From Planctomycetaceae bacterium (GTDB lineage Bacteria > Planctomycetota > Planctomycetia > Planctomycetales > Planctomycetaceae), in assembly GCA_021732415.1 (NCBI GenBank), contig JAKFVC010000033.1, positions 1 to 33,175 of the forward strand: DNA of 33,175 nucleotides. The letters are read 5' to 3'. The notes beneath the pieces were generated by a model that made no database searches, had not been told where the DNA came from, and saw nothing but the letters and a program-made list of their open reading frames with translations. The position numbers were made by a program, and so were the translations under genes. This document shows, one piece after another, positions 2,580 to 18,746 of this stretch (position 1 is the stretch's first letter; the number at the start of each line of letters is the position of its first letter).

Positions 2580-3503
2580 ATGAACGCCCTCTTCGAATCC
2601 CTCGGGAGTTTTCTCTTCCTGATCATGCTGGCGGCTGGGGCACGATTGGGTGGCAAGCGGTCCTCGACGCTGGTCTTGCAAAAGTTTTACATCTCCCAGA
2701 AGCCCACCTTGGATCACGCTCCCAGCGTGGAAATTGTCGGCCGCAAGCAAGGCCTCGTGGCCTTCGTATTGACCCTGCTGGGTTTTAGTCCCATCACACG
2801 ACTGACCATCGCTCGCGGCGAGGTTCGATACGAATCATCCAGCCTGTTCGGACAGCAATCGCAGTTCGTACCGTTGAGATGCATCACGGGAATTTCGGCT
2901 GGAATCTACAAGCCGGTATCCGCTCTCATTAACGCAGCAGTTGTTCTCTTCTTCGGCATTTTTATGAGCAACACGCTGGGCAGTCTCATACCGCTCGTGT
3001 TCGGATTGCTGGTCTTCTTTGGCCTGTGTGCCTTCTATTTCATCGCCAAGAAATTCTTCATCGATCTGCACGCACCCGGCGCTCCGGCAATTTCGTTGCT
3101 GGTCAAACCAAACGTGATCGAAGGGCTCCCCATTGATGTGGCAGAGGCCCTCGCCGTCGTGGGCGTCATCCGGGACCTGACCATGCAATCCACCTCTTCC
3201 AGCCAGGCCAACAGCGTTTTCCAGCCTGCACCATTGCTTCGAGATCCCGCCGACGGAACCGATTCTGTCGCCGACCGCGAAGACTCGTACTACGAGGAAG
3301 AGGCCCACGAGTCCGAGGAGGCCACGGAAGATGCAGGCGAAGAAGAAGCGAGAGAGCTGTTCGCCCGAGCCCGGCACTATGTCCAGGCGGGTCAACGCGA
3401 ACAGGCGGTCTCGGTCCTGCAGGCCGTCATTCGCCGCTTCCCCAACACCACATCAGCCGAACAGGCCCGGCGAAGTCTCGAGAAAATCGGCATTCGCGGC
3501 TGA
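2580..3503 (+). CDS. Membrane protein with C-terminal TPR-like segment, unknown function
   Basis: A 307-residue protein. A hydrophobic N-terminal stretch (residues 8-22) is followed by a soluble part of about 85 residues with a strand pattern (LTIARGEVRYESSSLF). Two membrane segments follow at about 113-130 and 134-156. A very acidic linker (YYEEEAHESEEATEDAGEEEA, near 240-260) leads to a C-terminal helical pair, ELFARARHYVQAGQREQAV and VIRRFPNTTSAEQARRSLEKIG, that looks like one TPR/YbgF-type repeat. The start is ATG 2580 with GAGG at 2571-2574. It converges on the DUF1501 gene across the 3588-3780 hairpin. I do not recognise a named family. Confidence 0.72.
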   Translation: MNALFESLGSFLFLIMLAAGARLGGKRSSTLVLQKFYISQKPTLDHAPSVEIVGRKQGLVAFVLTLLGFSPITRLTIARGEVRYESSSLFGQQSQFVPLRCITGISAGIYKPVSALINAAVVLFFGIFMSNTLGSLIPLVFGLLVFFGLCAFYFIAKKFFIDLHAPGAPAISLLVKPNVIEGLPIDVAEALAVVGVIRDLTMQSTSSSQANSVFQPAPLLRDPADGTDSVADREDSYYEEEAHESEEATEDAGEEEARELFARARHYVQAGQREQAVSVLQAVIRRFPNTTSAEQARRSLEKIGIRG

Positions 3504-6306: not shown

Positions 6307-6421
6307 CACGGACAGAGCTTGCCCCCCGATCCGGCAGCCGTCATCATGAACACGTTCCATTTCCCGATTTCATTGCGTCTTGTTTGCAATCGTGTCTCGT
6401 CGTTCTGACGGAGTTTCGCCC

Positions 6422-7921
6422 ATGAAAGCCTCGTCTGTGTTGAGTATGGTTGGTGCGTTGTTGGTCGTTTGGTTTATGGAGAATGCCTCTCCCGTCTGCG
6501 CCGCGGATGAACCCAAATGGCAATCCTTGTTGCCGGCCGTCGACGTGAAAACTCAATCGGTCGCCGGTCAATGGACCAAGACCGAGACCGGCCTGTCGGT
6601 CGCCGCAGGGCAGGGGGCCCGATTGTGGCTGCCGTTTGCTCCCACCGGTGAGTACGACGTGCGAATTCGCTTCACCCGCCAAAGTGGCATCCATTCGGTC
6701 GCCCTCTTTTTTCCACACGGTCCCGGCCAGGCCGCGTTCGAAGCCGATGCCTGGGGACAACATCTCGGCGGCATCCAGAACATCGGCGGCCAGTCGATCC
6801 GCGAGAACCCCACCCGACGCGCTAACGTGGCCCTGAAGAATGGCACGGAATACTCGATGACCGTCGAAGTCCGCCAGGGACAGATCCGTTCGTTGTTGGA
6901 CGATGAAGTCATCGCAACCTACAAAACAGATGGCCGAGACCTATCGGTCCCCGACCTCTGGTCACTGCCCAACAAGAAATCGCTGGGCATCGGAGCCTGG
7001 GAAAGCCAGACGACCTTCCACAGCATCGAAGCCCGCATGCTCAACGGCAAGCCAGTCCCGGGACTCGGCACGGAACCTCCGGCGGTCGCCTCCACAACCA
7101 CGCCCCCCACGACCACACCACAGACGACCAAGTCCACGAAGTCCGCACCACCCGCGACGACTAAACCATCGCCGCCAACAACCACCAAATCGTCCCCGAA
7201 GTCGTCCTCTAAAACATCCACTAAGACAGCAACAAAATCCGCAGACGGCAAACGAGTTCTCATCGTCATCGCCAATCAAGATTTCTTCTATCGAGAATAC
7301 GCCGACCCGCGAGCCGAACTCGAACGCGCCGGCTTCCAGGTCACAGTCGCCGCCGGCCGCCGAGGCCCCTGCCGCCCGCACCCGAACTCCGGCCAAACCG
7401 GAGGCGACGGCACCGTCATGTCCGACCTGGCACTGGCCGACGTGAACGCCAAAGATTACGAGACGATGCTCTTCTCCGGAGGCTGGGGTTCCTCGGCCTA
7501 TCAGTTCGCCTTCAACGGCCGCTACAACAACCCCAACTACAACGGCGAGCAACCCGTCAAAGCGCGAGTGAACCAACTGATCAACGATTTCCTCAAGCAA
7601 GGCAAATTCGTCTGCGCCTTATGCAACGCCGTCTCAGTCCTGGCCTGGGCCCGAGTCGACGGCCAAAGCCCCCTCAAAGGCAAAACCGTCTGCGCCCCAA
7701 CGCGCCAGGCCGCAGCCGGCATCTACAACGGCCAACCCGCCCAACCCTCCTGCCGCTGGCACCCCGAAGCCAACGGAGCCATCCTCTCCCCCGCGGGCGC
7801 TATCGGCCGTCCAGGCACCGCCGAGGACGACGTGACCGTCGACGGCCAGATTGTGACTGGCGAGGATGATATCTCCGCCCGCGCGATGGGTCGGAAGATT
7901 GTGGAGTTGTTGTCAAAATGA
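6422..7921 (+). CDS. Secreted protein: LamG/DUF1080-like domain, Ser/Thr/Pro/Lys linker, DJ-1/PfpI domain
   Basis: A 499-residue protein. A signal peptide (about 1-28, ending VCAA) is followed by a beta-sandwich-like domain (about 35-210; ARLWLPFAPTGEYDVRIRF, LGIGAWESQTTFHSIEARML) that resembles the sugar-binding/DUF1080 domains common in planctomycetes. A low-complexity linker of Thr, Pro, Ser and Lys spans about 218-275. The C-terminal domain (about 277-499) has the DJ-1/PfpI layout: GKRVLIVIANQDFFYREY, MLFSGGWGS and a candidate nucleophile Cys401 in VCALCNAVSVLAWA, with GRKIVELL at the end. Family members include glyoxalases, deglycases and proteases. ATG 6422 is preferred over the upstream TTG because GGAG at 6410-6413 precedes it and it begins a clean signal peptide. 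Confidence 0.85.
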   Translation: MKASSVLSMVGALLVVWFMENASPVCAADEPKWQSLLPAVDVKTQSVAGQWTKTETGLSVAAGQGARLWLPFAPTGEYDVRIRFTRQSGIHSVALFFPHGPGQAAFEADAWGQHLGGIQNIGGQSIRENPTRRANVALKNGTEYSMTVEVRQGQIRSLLDDEVIATYKTDGRDLSVPDLWSLPNKKSLGIGAWESQTTFHSIEARMLNGKPVPGLGTEPPAVASTTTPPTTTPQTTKSTKSAPPATTKPSPPTTTKSSPKSSSKTSTKTATKSADGKRVLIVIANQDFFYREYADPRAELERAGFQVTVAAGRRGPCRPHPNSGQTGGDGTVMSDLALADVNAKDYETMLFSGGWGSSAYQFAFNGRYNNPNYNGEQPVKARVNQLINDFLKQGKFVCALCNAVSVLAWARVDGQSPLKGKTVCAPTRQAAAGIYNGQPAQPSCRWHPEANGAILSPAGAIGRPGTAEDDVTVDGQIVTGEDDISARAMGRKIVELLSK

Positions 7922-8042
7922 CTGAGAGTGGTGCAGATTCAAAACATGAGGAAAGTAGTTCGTTGAAGTGATATCACGTAAACACGTAAAAGCGGCACGC
8001 AACTATTTGCCAAAGTCGTGCATTCCAGAGGTGCCCCCCAAT

Positions 8043-8071
8043 TTGACAGAACGTTGGGGATCGCGTATGCT
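8043..8071 (+). promoter_or_regulatory. Sigma-70-type promoter reading rightward into the small-peptide locus
   Basis: TTGACA at 8043-8048, a 17-base spacer, then TATGCT at 8066-8071. Transcription would begin near 8078. No + strand gene follows before the terminator at 8343-8384, so the product would be a non-coding RNA antisense to the 8195-8272 ORF. Confidence 0.6.
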
Positions 8072-8118
8072 AGCTAGTTAGTGTGGTTAGTGGCCCACGT
8101 TTACACTCGGGGCTCATG

Positions 8119-8165
8119 AAAATTAAAATGGTGACAGGAAAGGTGTAGTCCTAACCTGCCACCAT
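8119..8165 (-). terminator. Intrinsic terminator of the small-peptide gene
   Basis: Read on the minus strand, 8165-8155 (ATGGTGGCAGG) pairs with 8138-8128 (CCTGTCACCAT) over 11 base pairs including one G-U, with a 16-base loop, and is followed by TTTTAATTTT. It lies about 30 bases after the stop of the 8195-8272 ORF. Confidence 0.7.
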
Positions 8166-8194
8166 CGTTGAACATTGTTTCTTCTCAATGGCGA

Positions 8195-8272
8195 TTACCT
8201 GAATGCATGGATTATCGCCAGCACGAAGTACGCGGTTCCGATTAGCGTATAAACGATGGCTAGTGAATTCAT
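8195..8272 (-). CDS. Small single-span membrane peptide, 25 residues
   Basis: The reading frame starts MNSLAIVYTLIG and ends IIHAFR; everything between is hydrophobic, so it forms one membrane helix with a basic C-terminus (His-Ala-Phe-Arg). It is preceded by a textbook ribosome site (AAAGGAGGT at 8285-8277, four bases from ATG), among the strongest in this window, and followed by its own terminator. That combination makes a chance ORF unlikely. In size and character it resembles type I toxins (Ibs, Fst, TxpA) as well as small subunits such as KdpF or CydX, but no partner operon is adjacent and I do not recognise the sequence. A promoter-terminator pair on the opposite strand would make an RNA covering the whole gene. 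Confidence 0.65.
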   Translation of the reverse strand: MNSLAIVYTLIGTAYFVLAIIHAFR

Positions 8273-8276
8273 GGTG

Positions 8277-8285
8277 ACCTCCTTT
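8277..8285 (-). promoter_or_regulatory. Perfect Shine-Dalgarno site for the small peptide
   Basis: AAAGGAGGT on the minus strand is a nine-base match to the 16S anti-SD region, four bases (CACC) before ATG 8272. It is much stronger than most sites in this window and is the main reason for calling the short gene real. Confidence 0.75.
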
Positions 8286-8342
8286 CTACGTGACTAGGGT
8301 TGATAGCACTTCCGAAACGTGGAACTGAGCTTCACTTTGATG

Positions 8343-8384
8343 GCCGGCAGCGAATGCAACTCGCTGACCGGCTTTTTGTGTTTT
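8343..8384 (+). terminator. Strong intrinsic terminator, + strand
   Basis: GCCGGCAGCGA (8343-8353) pairs with TCGCTGACCGGC (8361-8372) with one bulged A and a 7-base loop, followed by TTTTTGTGTTTT. No + strand gene ends nearby, which points to a non-coding transcript from the 8043 promoter. If the minus strand is transcribed from further right, the same sequence forms a hairpin in the small-peptide mRNA leader. Confidence 0.75.
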
Positions 8385-8722
8385 GAAGCCCCCGATTAAC
8401 GACGCATAAGTATGTATTGTTAGTGGCAATTCCGATTATCTCGATTAAGGCCAATAAGCAGGCCGGAAGCTTTCGGCGATTGTAAGACATCGCTTCGCAC
8501 ATTGTCCACAACCGAGCGGCACAATCTCACACCATTTATTGAAGTAACTTCTAGCCGGCAAGCAGGATGCGTCGATAGAGAACCAGATGCTCCGCTCGCT
8601 GGCAAACGGGACCGCGACTCAAACAGCGAGCCTACGAGCCGCAGTGTTTGTTCGACAGCGCATTCACGCAATTGATGAAGAGTTCACCGGCGGGCCAACT
8701 TGCTAGCCAACTAGCTAGTCAA

Positions 8723-8748
8723 TTAATAACTAGCTAGCTAGTTATTAA
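8723..8748. repeat. Perfect 26-bp palindrome containing CTAGCTAGCTAG
   Basis: TTAATAA, then three overlapping CTAG units, then TTATTAA; the whole is its own reverse complement. A related CTAGCTAG lies just to the left (8711-8719), and GCTAGCTAG also occurs at 8069-8077. It is a candidate protein-binding site, for example an operator or recombination site. Confidence 0.75.
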
Positions 8749-8928
8749 GACCGCTCTACTAAATTCGCTGCCAACAATAACTTCGAGAATCTGACGTATG
8801 GCACTGTCGCCAATAGTGTTAGCAGTATCCATACTGATCGGAATAGTAAGTGCTCGCGTGGAATTTCTCGACTGCTACCAAGTTGGATGGCTAATCAGTC
8901 GGCGCAGCCCCCTACAAGACGCCAAAGC

Positions 8929-8944
8929 AGCGAGCTAGCTCGCT
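8929..8944. repeat. Perfect 16-bp palindrome AGCGAGCTAGCTCGCT
   Basis: The sequence is its own reverse complement and again has CTAG at its centre. It sits about 48 bases upstream of the -35 box of the promoter for the 9119 gene, which is a reasonable place for a regulator-binding site. Confidence 0.7.
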
Positions 8945-8949
8945 CGCTT

Positions 8950-8992
8950 GAATGCCAACGCTTTGACTCCCCAGAATGCCAGCGCATTGACT
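8950..8992 (+). repeat. Two 19-bp direct repeats next to a promoter
   Basis: GAATGCCAACGCTTTGACT (8950-8968) and GAATGCCAGCGCATTGACT (8974-8992) differ at two positions and are 24 bases apart, start to start. The second ends at the first base of the -35 box. Tandem sites at a promoter suggest operator binding, possibly by the product of the 9119 gene. Confidence 0.65.
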
Positions 8993-9021
8993 TGACAAAT
9001 TACCAGCATCGTTTTTATATT
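8992..9021 (+). promoter_or_regulatory. Sigma-70-type promoter for the 9119 gene
   Basis: TTGACA at 8992-8997 and TATATT at 9016-9021 (18-base spacer; TTATAT gives 17). Transcription would start near 9028, leaving a leader of about 90 bases before ATG 9119. Confidence 0.6.
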
Positions 9022-9118
9022 TTTAATCCGACACACGATCGTTGAATTCTATGTGTTCTTAATTTCACTCCGTCTTCGGGTGGCGATCTTCGGATTTCGA
9101 GAGTTAGGGTCTAGCGCT

Positions 9119-9571
9119 ATGCCTGCCAAGCCAATCAAACCAAACGAAGATGGAAATGACGCCCTCGGCACCAAGCTTCACAAGGCTTTGGACAAAGCCT
9201 TGAAGGAAGCCAAGAAGATCCGCATGAGAGACGAGGAACTCGTCGATGGCGAACCCCGGACGAAGAAAGACATTGTCATCTCGGCCCTGAGAAATTGGCT
9301 GGAGACCCACGCAGGGAAGACTGATGATGATGGCTTTCATCCGCGCCCAATGAGGGGAGGCCGAGAGGCGCAGGGCAAGGAAGACCTGAATATTTCAATG
9401 CCAAAGGAATTGCTGGATACTGTCAAGGCGGAGGCCGGGCGGCGGAAAGACGATGAAATCAAGCCGGAGTCTGTGCGATCGCTGGTTGAGTCAGCTCTCA
9501 CGGAGTGGCTGCTGCAGAATGATTTCAAAGATTTGCTGACATGGATCGAACCGGGGAAAAAAGCCAAGTAG
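9119..9571 (+). CDS. Ribbon-helix-helix-like DNA-binding protein, possibly two RHH units
   Basis: A 150-residue, strongly charged protein. The C-terminal part has the Arc/MetJ pattern: a strand with alternating residues (EDLNISMPKELLDTVKAEA, from about residue 88) then a helix ending in VRSLVESALTEWLLQ. The N-terminal part has a similar outline (ALDKALKEAKKIRMRDEEL, then KKDIVISALRNWLETH), so it may be a tandem RHH. Such proteins are transcription repressors or antitoxins. ATG 9119 is preferred; the frame is also open to a GTG at 9053, which would add a poorly charged N-terminus. No toxin gene follows: the next gene is the convergent kinase. It may regulate itself through the repeats at 8929-8992. 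Confidence 0.6.
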   Translation: MPAKPIKPNEDGNDALGTKLHKALDKALKEAKKIRMRDEELVDGEPRTKKDIVISALRNWLETHAGKTDDDGFHPRPMRGGREAQGKEDLNISMPKELLDTVKAEAGRRKDDEIKPESVRSLVESALTEWLLQNDFKDLLTWIEPGKKAK

Positions 9572-9685
9572 TGGTTCCTCGATCGAAGGATAACAGAGCG
9601 TGAATACAAGGCCGTGGCAGTGTTTGGACGTCTCTGATCTCTTGTGCGAACCTCATCGATCGCCTCACAAAAATGGGCCTGCGCG

Positions 9686-11899: not shown

Positions 11900-12024
11900 G
11901 GTGAGCCCCGTCCCGTGAGGGCGGGGGGAGAGTAGAGAGTTCCGCTGCGCAACGGGCATTGAGCGACGTCTATCGGCAATCAGAGTCGCAACTCTACCCC
12001 CGCCCTTACGGGACGGGGCTCACC
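11900..12024 (+). repeat. 125-bp palindromic repeat, copy 1
   Basis: Outer arms GGTGAGCCCCGTCCCGTGAG... and ...GGGACGGGGCTCACC pair over about 38 bases with few mismatches, with GGCGGGGG and CCCCCGCC inside. 18596-18720 is the same element in reverse orientation and exactly the same length; the centre (GACGTCTATCG ... CAGAGTCGCAAC) is also shared. It lies between the kinase and the ATPase gene. Confidence 0.85.
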
Positions 12025-12111
12025 TGATTTCTGGTTGATCGATTTCAGGTTGTTTGAGGGCTGTTCGTTTGCCTGATTGTTGTTGCGACTACCTTTAGAA
12101 AGGGACTCACC

Positions 12112-14895: not shown

Positions 14896-15057
14896 TGTTC
14901 GAGTAATCGGTCTGGCACGCCGTTCCGCTCACGAGAGCAAGCGGACCGCAGCATTTGCGAAAGCCGGTGGTTGCAGTCAGCGCAAACCAAGTAGTATCGA
15001 GTACAATCGGGCGAGTAGACTTTTGTGATTTCGTGCACGATTTGTTGATTTCTATTA

Positions 15058-15253
15058 GCCCCGGAAGGGGCGACCGAATATAGCCTGGGGCGGAAGCACC
15101 AGGTTGTGGCGTGTAAGACAATCCAAGCCCCGGAGGGGCGACCGACGATCTGTCCGGCAAGGTGTCGGTCGCCCCTCCGGGGCTTGGGTATTGTGTTGTT
15201 GTCGAGTCCTGGGGCTTCCGCCCCAGGCTATATTCGGACGTCCCTGCCGGGAC
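15058..15253. repeat. Nested long palindrome between TPR and DUF1501 genes
   Basis: The inner arms 15123-15146 and 15164-15187 are perfect 24-base complements (CCAAGCCCCGGAGGGGCGAC...). The outer arms 15058-15103 and 15208-15253 pair with a few mismatches (GCCTGGGGCGGAAGC with GCTTCCGCCCCAGGC). The GC-rich inner arms could form a very stable hairpin. It is likely another dispersed palindrome family; here it occurs once. Confidence 0.85.
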
Positions 15254-15353
15254 TACATGCATAACATTTTCGTTGCCGTTTTGTTAGGACGTTCGTTTAA
15301 CTAATCGCCACTTTGCGTTTGCATCAAGTGACGTCCACGACATTAGGAATACC

Positions 15354-18554: not shown

Positions 18555-18595
18555 GGCTGACGAAAATGCGAACGTGCAACCCCCACAGATTTTTA

Positions 18596-18720
18596 GGCGA
18601 GCCCCGTCCCGAAAGGGCGGGGATAGGGTTGCGACTCTGAGTGGCGATAGACGTCATAGGATGTCGGATTTATAGCGAAAGTCGCTACTCTACCCCCGCC
18701 CTTACGGGACGGGGCTCGCC
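18596..18720 (-). repeat. 125-bp palindromic repeat, copy 2
   Basis: Reverse-oriented copy of 11900-12024 with the same length and shared arms and centre. TTA occurs directly on both sides (18593-18595 and 18721-18723), perhaps a 3-bp target duplication; copy 1 shows no such match. It lies just downstream of the sialidase gene and upstream of the cysteine hydrolase gene. Confidence 0.85.
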
Positions 18721-18746
18721 TTAATCTACAAGGAAAGACCTACAAT

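What the first reader, a model, noticed from the sequence alone, without database searches (positions are those of the whole stretch)
8043..8384. Small hydrophobic peptide gene with a perfectly opposed transcription unit: candidate type I-like toxin-antitoxin locus
Minus strand: AAAGGAGGT, ATG, 25 codons of an almost wholly hydrophobic peptide ending His-Ala-Phe-Arg, stop, then an 11-bp hairpin with a T-tract. Plus strand: TTGACA-17-TATGCT promoter (8043-8071) and an 11-bp hairpin with TTTTTGTGTTTT (8343-8384), with no + strand ORF between. The + RNA would cover the whole peptide mRNA. Known type I systems (Ibs/Sib, Fst, TxpA/RatA) have the same logic. To my knowledge no such system is well described in planctomycetes. 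The peptide gene is strongly supported; the antisense RNA and toxicity are inference. No clear minus-strand promoter was found.
Basis: partly seen in the sequence, partly recalled or inferred. Interest (0 to 1): 0.75.

Follow-up and report, generated by a model that had tools for sequence, protein, structure and literature searches.

The report
Candidate peptide toxin with antisense RNA
A bacterium, probably a planctomycete, carries a 25-residue hydrophobic peptide gene lying face to face with an apparent antisense RNA gene, laid out like bacterial toxin pairs that an RNA keeps silent; the layout is well supported by sequence, but toxicity and expression are untested and no relative of the peptide was found.

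Summary
The plus strand has a promoter-like site and a strong terminator-like hairpin with no convincing ORF between. So two opposed units cover one another. In 2.36 Mb of the same genome, promoter-to-terminator units occurred at 6 other places, each over a long frame, none antisense to a hydrophobic mini-ORF. In 1500 shuffles of the region an opposed pair never arose. AAAGGAGGT is absent from those 2.36 Mb (14 expected). The locus lies in a 1.75-kb segment absent at that site in the nearest relative. A weak likeness to the C-terminus of ParE toxins leaves open a relic or ParE-derived peptide. Best reading: an antisense-controlled small membrane peptide working like a type I toxin-antitoxin pair (about 0.5). 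Paper searches showed no type I system in planctomycetes.

The parts
8195..8272 (-). 25-codon ORF with stop, MNSLAIVYTLIGTAYFVLAIIHAFR; candidate membrane peptide
   Evidence: hydropathy 1.44, best 17-residue window 2.22
8277..8285 (-). Shine-Dalgarno AAAGGAGGT, 4 nt before ATG
   Evidence: 9 of 9, and 0 copies in 2.36 Mb of the same genome, both strands
   Evidence: consensus match only, 10 of 12
8117..8163 (-). terminator-like hairpin (stem 8163-8130) and T-rich tail after the peptide
8118..8472 (-). inferred peptide mRNA, about 355 nt
   Evidence: Inferred from promoter and terminator; folded (and to 8108)
8043..8071 (+). promoter-like TTGACA-17-TATGCT for the antisense RNA
   Evidence: 10 of 12
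8100..8129 (+). second promoter-like site TTTACA-18-TAAAAT
   Evidence: 10 of 12
8343..8384 (+). terminator-like hairpin (stem 8343-8372) and T tract of the antisense RNA
8078..8384 (+). inferred antisense RNA, about 307 nt, complementary to the whole ORF and its Shine-Dalgarno sequence
   Evidence: Inferred from promoter and terminator; fold z -3.0, but -0.7 for the 150 nt between the terminators
7922..9676 (.). accessory segment between a DJ-1/PfpI-domain gene and a protein kinase gene; 2.76 kb of unrelated DNA stands there in the nearest relative
9119..9571 (+). orphan 150-aa gene in the same segment; link to the peptide unknown

Best explanation
A small accessory cassette working like a type I toxin-antitoxin pair. 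From the promoter at 8508-8479 a roughly 355-nt mRNA is made, and ribosomes recruited by an unusually strong Shine-Dalgarno sequence make a 25-residue peptide that inserts in the membrane and, in excess, depolarises it. From the promoter at 8043-8071 a roughly 307-nt RNA is made on the other strand. It is complementary to the entire ORF, its start and its Shine-Dalgarno sequence, so duplex formation blocks translation and/or exposes the mRNA to double-strand-specific RNase. Loss or decay of the antisense RNA would release the peptide. Shown: the sequence signals on both strands, their improbability, and the accessory position. Inferred: both transcripts, translation, membrane insertion, toxicity and neutralisation.
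For: Signals on both strands. Opposed units in 0 of 1500 shuffles. Of 10 promoter-to-terminator rows found in 2.36 Mb plus the window, the 3 rows at this locus are the only ones not mostly covered by a frame of 100 codons or more, and only here does an antisense hydrophobic mini-ORF exist. 9/9 Shine-Dalgarno against 0 in 2.36 Mb; of 290 frames of 300 or more codons in 30 stretches, 12 had a match of 6 or more at an ATG in their first 120 codons. Accessory segment, no second copy found in the genome. Size, hydrophobicity and a C-terminal basic residue fit the common features of membrane-acting type I toxins (PMC8309996, passages). A candidate type I locus in another phylum was nominated by the same kind of anatomy, and its peptide impaired E. 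coli growth (PMC12390103, abstract).
Against: No relative of the peptide recognised: 0 of 58 other genomes (E<=1); 10 of 396 others (E<=10); 4 of 169 (E<=1); 2 of 391 (E<=0.5); the samples overlap, and none of the 13 distinct weak loci is equivalent. No conservation, so no covariation or codon-constraint test. Promoters are consensus matches only, each missing 2 of 12 positions, and matches of 9 or more of 12 number 4 against a shuffle mean of 1.5. Shine-Dalgarno sequestration is not clearly beyond chance (21 of 300, 57 of 300, 13 of 60 flank shuffles as low or lower). The fold z-scores of about -3 vanish between the terminators. The peptide has a weak ParE C-terminus likeness. No expression data.
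Confidence: 0.5

Rival explanations
1. A non-toxic small membrane peptide (for example a regulator of a membrane protein) whose synthesis is tuned by a cis-antisense RNA; same anatomy, no killing.
For: Same signals on both strands; sequence alone cannot tell toxic from harmless membrane peptides.
Against: Small regulatory peptides tend to be conserved with their partner (general knowledge); this one is in an accessory segment without recognised relatives. No partner gene lies in the unit.
Confidence: 0.2
2. The peptide gene is real but the plus signals are not an antitoxin gene: the plus hairpin merely terminates read-through from the DJ-1/PfpI-domain gene that ends at 7921, and the plus promoter match is chance.
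For: The upstream gene ends at 7921 on the same strand, and the fold-based scan found no other plus terminator in 7900-9200; promoter matches of 9 or more of 12 occur by chance (mean 1.5 in shuffles of 1.2 kb).
Against: Promoter and terminator in order at the set distance: 3 of 1500 shuffles on the plus strand. A read-through mRNA would still be antisense to the peptide mRNA.
Confidence: 0.15
3. The ORF is a relic of, or derived from, the C-terminus of a ParE/RelE-type type II toxin: its hydrophobic run is two beta strands ending in the ParE pattern IxY...LAxxHxxR, not a membrane helix.
For: 3 of the 13 weak tblastn loci are ParE C-termini aligned in the same register (36.2 and 32.9 bits over the Pfam cut-off of 23, and 20.0 just under it). 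A ParE profile built without the two loci found by the peptide scores it 7.4 bits, 1 of 5000 shuffles as high, and the 32-residue stop-to-stop frame 9.3 bits, rank 2 of 64,364 six-frame fragments after one true ParE. Without one member that holds a stop: 7.1 and 9.0 bits, again 1 of 5000 and rank 2.
Against: The family was chosen after seeing the hits, and the profile's plasmid members were found with those same loci as queries. E = 4.7 or 5.8 is not significant on its own. Pfam gives no match for the peptide or its frame at E<=10. No trace of the rest of a ParE gene in any frame of 7900-9200. A relic would not be expected to carry a 9/9 Shine-Dalgarno sequence and complete units on both strands.
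Confidence: 0.1
4. Chance: an intergenic stretch in which ORF, Shine-Dalgarno sequence, promoters and hairpins coincide without function.
For: No conservation; the finding was picked by a reader out of a long text.
Against: Each signal is rare, and an opposed pair was not reached in 1500 shuffles or elsewhere in 2.36 Mb of the genome.
Confidence: 0.05

Closest known systems
Ibs/Sib (E. coli), type I
   Same: Very short hydrophobic peptide; antisense RNA made from the opposite strand over the whole ORF (recalled).
   Different: Ibs/Sib come in several repeated copies (recalled), here one copy found; no Pfam or NCBIfam match and no Rfam match of 7900-9200.
Fst/Ldr family, type I
   Same: Short membrane peptide under antisense RNA control (PMC8309996, abstract and passages).
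   Different: The PXXXGC motif given for Fst/Ldr in PMC8309996 (passage) is absent: the peptide has no proline and no cysteine.
TxpA/RatA (Bacillus), type I
   Same: Antisense RNA pairs with the toxin mRNA; duplex degraded by RNase III (PMC12390103, passage).
   Different: There the overlap is at the 3' ends (recalled); here it covers the whole ORF and its start.
MsoT1/MsoA1 (Microcystis), 2025
   Same: Nominated from the same kind of anatomy: small membrane ORF, antisense promoter and terminator, overlap with toxin mRNA (PMC12390103, section 5.1.1).
   Different: Another phylum; toxicity tested there, not here. No sequence comparison was made.
ParE/RelE type II toxins
   Same: The peptide's IxY...LAxxHxxR pattern lines up with the ParE C-terminus.
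   Different: The ParE frames seen are about 90-100 residues and ParE has a protein antitoxin (recalled); only about 30 residues match, weakly, and no ParE remainder was found beside it.

Membership tests
Type I toxin-antitoxin systems | Toxin under about 60 residues, hydrophobic, one predicted membrane helix | tested here: met
   25 residues, hydropathy 1.44, best 17-window 2.22; hydropathy only, no topology program, and a ParE-like beta reading is not excluded
Type I toxin-antitoxin systems | Antisense RNA gene with its own promoter and terminator, overlapping the toxin mRNA | tested here: inconclusive
   Sequence signals present; transcription not shown
Type I toxin-antitoxin systems | Toxin not part of an operon with unrelated genes | tested here: met
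   Own promoter- and terminator-like sites; the nearest frame of 80 or more aa upstream on that strand is an 83-codon TTG frame at 8671-8420, not identified, which overlaps the promoter match
Type I toxin-antitoxin systems | Toxin mRNA folded so that the Shine-Dalgarno sequence is sequestered (many members; recalled) | tested here: inconclusive
   Mean unpaired 0.20-0.27, not clearly below flank shuffles
Type I toxin-antitoxin systems | Ectopic expression of the peptide stops growth | not testable with these tools
   needs an experiment
Type I toxin-antitoxin systems | The RNA neutralises the peptide by pairing with its mRNA | not testable with these tools
   needs an experiment
Known type I toxin protein families | Match to a curated family model | tested here: not met
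   0 families in Pfam, NCBIfam, PHROGs, PADLOC; no PDB chain. That these libraries hold the type I families is recalled
Fst/Ldr | PXXXGC motif | tested here: not met
   No P and no C in the peptide; motif from PMC8309996 passage
ParE/RelE type II toxins | Full ParE domain of about 90 residues | tested here: not met
   Only the C-terminal third resembles it; no Pfam match at E<=10

The most novel reading that the evidence does not exclude
A type I toxin that arose from a type II one: the last two strands of a ParE-like toxin, cut free, given its own start site and placed under an antisense RNA in place of a protein antitoxin, carried on a small accessory cassette in a planctomycete.
Probability: 0.07. 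Interest if true: 0.8.

Novelty: new member of a known kind. Interest (0 to 1): 0.5.

Why it matters
A 2025 paper states that type I systems had been found only in Proteobacteria, Firmicutes and Tenericutes before its own cyanobacterial candidate, and says this narrowness is thought to reflect search bias (PMC12390103, abstract and introduction passages). A planctomycete case with an unrelated peptide would support that and give a cheap, direct test. My searches for the two subjects together showed no type I system in planctomycetes: 1 paper, PMC2875224; passages read: the term occurs only in its reference list; 1 paper, PMC12654330; passages read: the planctomycete pairs named there, such as HicA/HicB and RelE/RelB, are not antisense-RNA types as I know them; it also counts orphan toxins in Planctomycetota whose types I did not see; 71 papers, 15 listed, none opened. 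The survey by Fozo et al. 2010 is not held, and the library holds only open-licence papers, so absence from print is not shown.

Tried and rejected
Homologues: protein searches of the own genome, relatives, class, family and phylum, a DNA search in 170 family genomes (one other match, 40 nt, E 0.0099, outside the ORF), phages and plasmids. My first reading of the weak loci used wrong strands or offsets for some of them; redid those and the later ones, 13 in all. L117 and L118 (29- and 32-residue frames) looked like mini-ORFs but have no ATG, and long frames cross them on the other strand. L016 has an ATG but no Shine-Dalgarno sequence.

Paralogues: one search gave short DNA matches inside the ORF region in G002 (L004) and the own genome (L008); both lie in other, longer open frames.

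Known RNA: no Rfam match at E<=5. Special RNA structure: not supported, since the z-scores of about -3 come from the terminators. Shine-Dalgarno sequestration: not clearly beyond chance.

The neighbour at 9119 as a partner: no relatives in 35 other genomes, plasmids or viral contigs; in genome contigs 29 stretches matched a pattern and 1 gave a 33-residue match, not followed up. Structure prediction was poor (pLDDT 51), so no fold search. Calling it ribbon-helix-helix-like was by eye only.

ParE relic: tested; kept as a rival. H20 and H21 were fetched but not used in the profile. Of 5 plasmid records, 4 were fetched and used; of 14. One of these, L161, holds a stop codon that the script dropped (found); one search repeats the test without L161.

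16S rRNA was not found in the assembly, so pairing with this organism's own anti-Shine-Dalgarno sequence is assumed.

Full report
Observation. The minus strand holds AAAGGAGGT, CACC, ATG and the 25-codon ORF MNSLAIVYTLIGTAYFVLAIIHAFR. The plus strand holds TTGACA-17-TATGCT at 8043-8071, a second promoter-like site at 8100-8129, and a hairpin with T tract at 8343-8384. The nine plus-strand frames listed between them run to 25 residues at most, and by inspection none has a Shine-Dalgarno sequence of note.

Is it more than chance? Promoter matches alone only modestly exceed shuffles (4 against a mean of 1.5, sd 1.1). I used two further controls. First, 1500 dinucleotide shuffles of 7924-9118: a promoter-to-terminator unit arose 3 times on the plus strand, once on the minus strand, and never as an opposed overlapping pair. 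Second, the rest of the genome: 118 stretches of 20 kb (2.36 of 9.87 Mb). With the same rules, stretches plus window gave 97 promoter-like and 217 terminator-like sites and 10 unit rows. Three rows are this locus. The other seven (six places) are each more than half covered by a frame of 100 codons or more, and none has a hydrophobic mini-ORF opposite. AAAGGAGGT does not occur in the 2.36 Mb on either strand, while 14.1 are expected from base composition. In 1.56 Mb, ATG mini-ORFs of 15-50 codons with at least 8 Shine-Dalgarno matches numbered one, and it was not hydrophobic. The finding was picked by a reader, so these numbers are not corrected for the choice.

Setting. Upstream is a gene with a DJ-1/PfpI domain (6380-7921) and downstream, facing it, a protein kinase gene (11566-9686). 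In G003, the nearest relative by the first gene, the same two genes lie in the same order, 83 and 87% identical at the DNA level, but 7922-9676 has no counterpart: 2.76 kb of other DNA stands there, and 7900-9100 had no match anywhere in that incomplete assembly. In G002 what follows the DJ-1/PfpI gene is different again. The peptide locus is therefore accessory. It shares the segment with an orphan gene (9119-9571) that has an 11-of-12 promoter match before it.

Conservation. Translated searches for the peptide found itself and nothing equivalent: 0 of 58 other genomes among relatives at E<=1, 10 of 396 others in the class at E<=10, 4 of 169 in the family at E<=1, 2 of 391 in the phylum at E<=0.5. 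These samples overlap. The 13 distinct loci were all read: seven lie in frames of 135 codons or more, three are ParE-type C-termini, L117 and L118 have no ATG, and L016 has no Shine-Dalgarno sequence. No phage or plasmid match, no family in Pfam, NCBIfam, PHROGs or PADLOC, no PDB chain, no Rfam family. A first-look filter stands in front of the genome search, so distant relatives can have been missed.

ParE lead. Three of the 13 weak loci are C-termini of ParE/RelE toxins in the same register. A small ParE profile made without the two loci found by the peptide gives the peptide 7.4 bits (1 of 5000 shuffles as high) and its stop-to-stop frame 9.3 bits, second of 64,364 six-frame fragments after one real ParE, yet with E = 4.7. 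Leaving out one member with a stop gives 7.1 and 9.0 bits, again 1 of 5000 and second, E = 5.8. The plasmid members were found with those two loci as queries, so the profile is not fully independent. No other ParE remnant was seen in 7900-9200. Since the family was chosen after the fact, this is a lead, not a result. It matters because ParE's matching part is, as I recall its fold, beta structure, so hydrophobicity alone does not prove a membrane helix.

RNA structure. Both predicted RNAs fold better than shuffles (z -3.0 and -3.4), but the 150 nt between the terminators do not (z -0.7 and +0.7). The Shine-Dalgarno sequence is largely paired in prediction, but not clearly beyond flank shuffles. 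There is no evidence here for a metastable or sequestered toxin mRNA.

Mechanism. Two overlapping opposed units, with the antisense RNA covering start, Shine-Dalgarno sequence and ORF, most simply mean that the plus RNA controls synthesis of the peptide by duplex formation. A strong ribosome site on a short hydrophobic peptide, covered by an antisense RNA, in an accessory segment, is the pattern of type I toxin-antitoxin pairs. I put 0.5 on that, 0.2 on a harmless antisense-controlled membrane peptide, 0.15 on a peptide gene facing mere read-through, 0.1 on ParE origin or relic, 0.05 on chance.

Known and new. [quoted passage not shown] A study nominated cyanobacterial type I loci by the same kind of anatomy and found a toxic peptide whose effect its RNA delays (PMC12390103: abstract, passages, section 5.1.1); it says type I systems were known before only in three phyla. 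The one planctomycete species in a comparative study is among those with a small fraction of Shine-Dalgarno genes (PMC5397173, passages), which fits my survey and makes the 9/9 site here stand out; it may point to acquired DNA. Paper searches showed no report of a type I system in planctomycetes, within the limits told under Why it matters. The peptide matched no described family, so I file the locus as a candidate new member of a known kind.

Noticed in passing
window 8723-8748: Perfect 26-bp palindrome TTAATAACTAGCTAGCTAGTTATTAA amid CTAG-rich repeats (8697-8746); a CTAGCTAG string also lies at the plus -10 site.
   Followed up: partly
window 9119-9571, +: Orphan 150-aa protein whose two halves look alike by eye, with an 11-of-12 promoter match at 8992-9021; no relatives found, one 33-residue match.
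   Followed up: partly
window 8160-8189 and 9034-9063: 30-nt direct repeat, 73% identical: one copy in the 3' part of the peptide mRNA region, one just after the promoter match of the orphan gene; possibly chance.
   Followed up: no
window 11900-12029, 15056-15257, 18595-18721: Stretches matching many contigs of G003 and G002: dispersed repeat families of this genus. The first and third match the same contigs on opposite strands, so they look like inverted copies of one element.
   Followed up: no
own genome, 2.36 Mb surveyed: AAAGGAGGT is absent, and AAGGAGGT and AAGGAGG are about five and three times rarer than base composition predicts (14 against 66, 102 against 310): avoidance of strong Shine-Dalgarno strings.
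   Followed up: partly
L093 about 2767-3111, -: The one clear ParE-type toxin frame that the small profile found in the 2.36 Mb survey.
   Followed up: no
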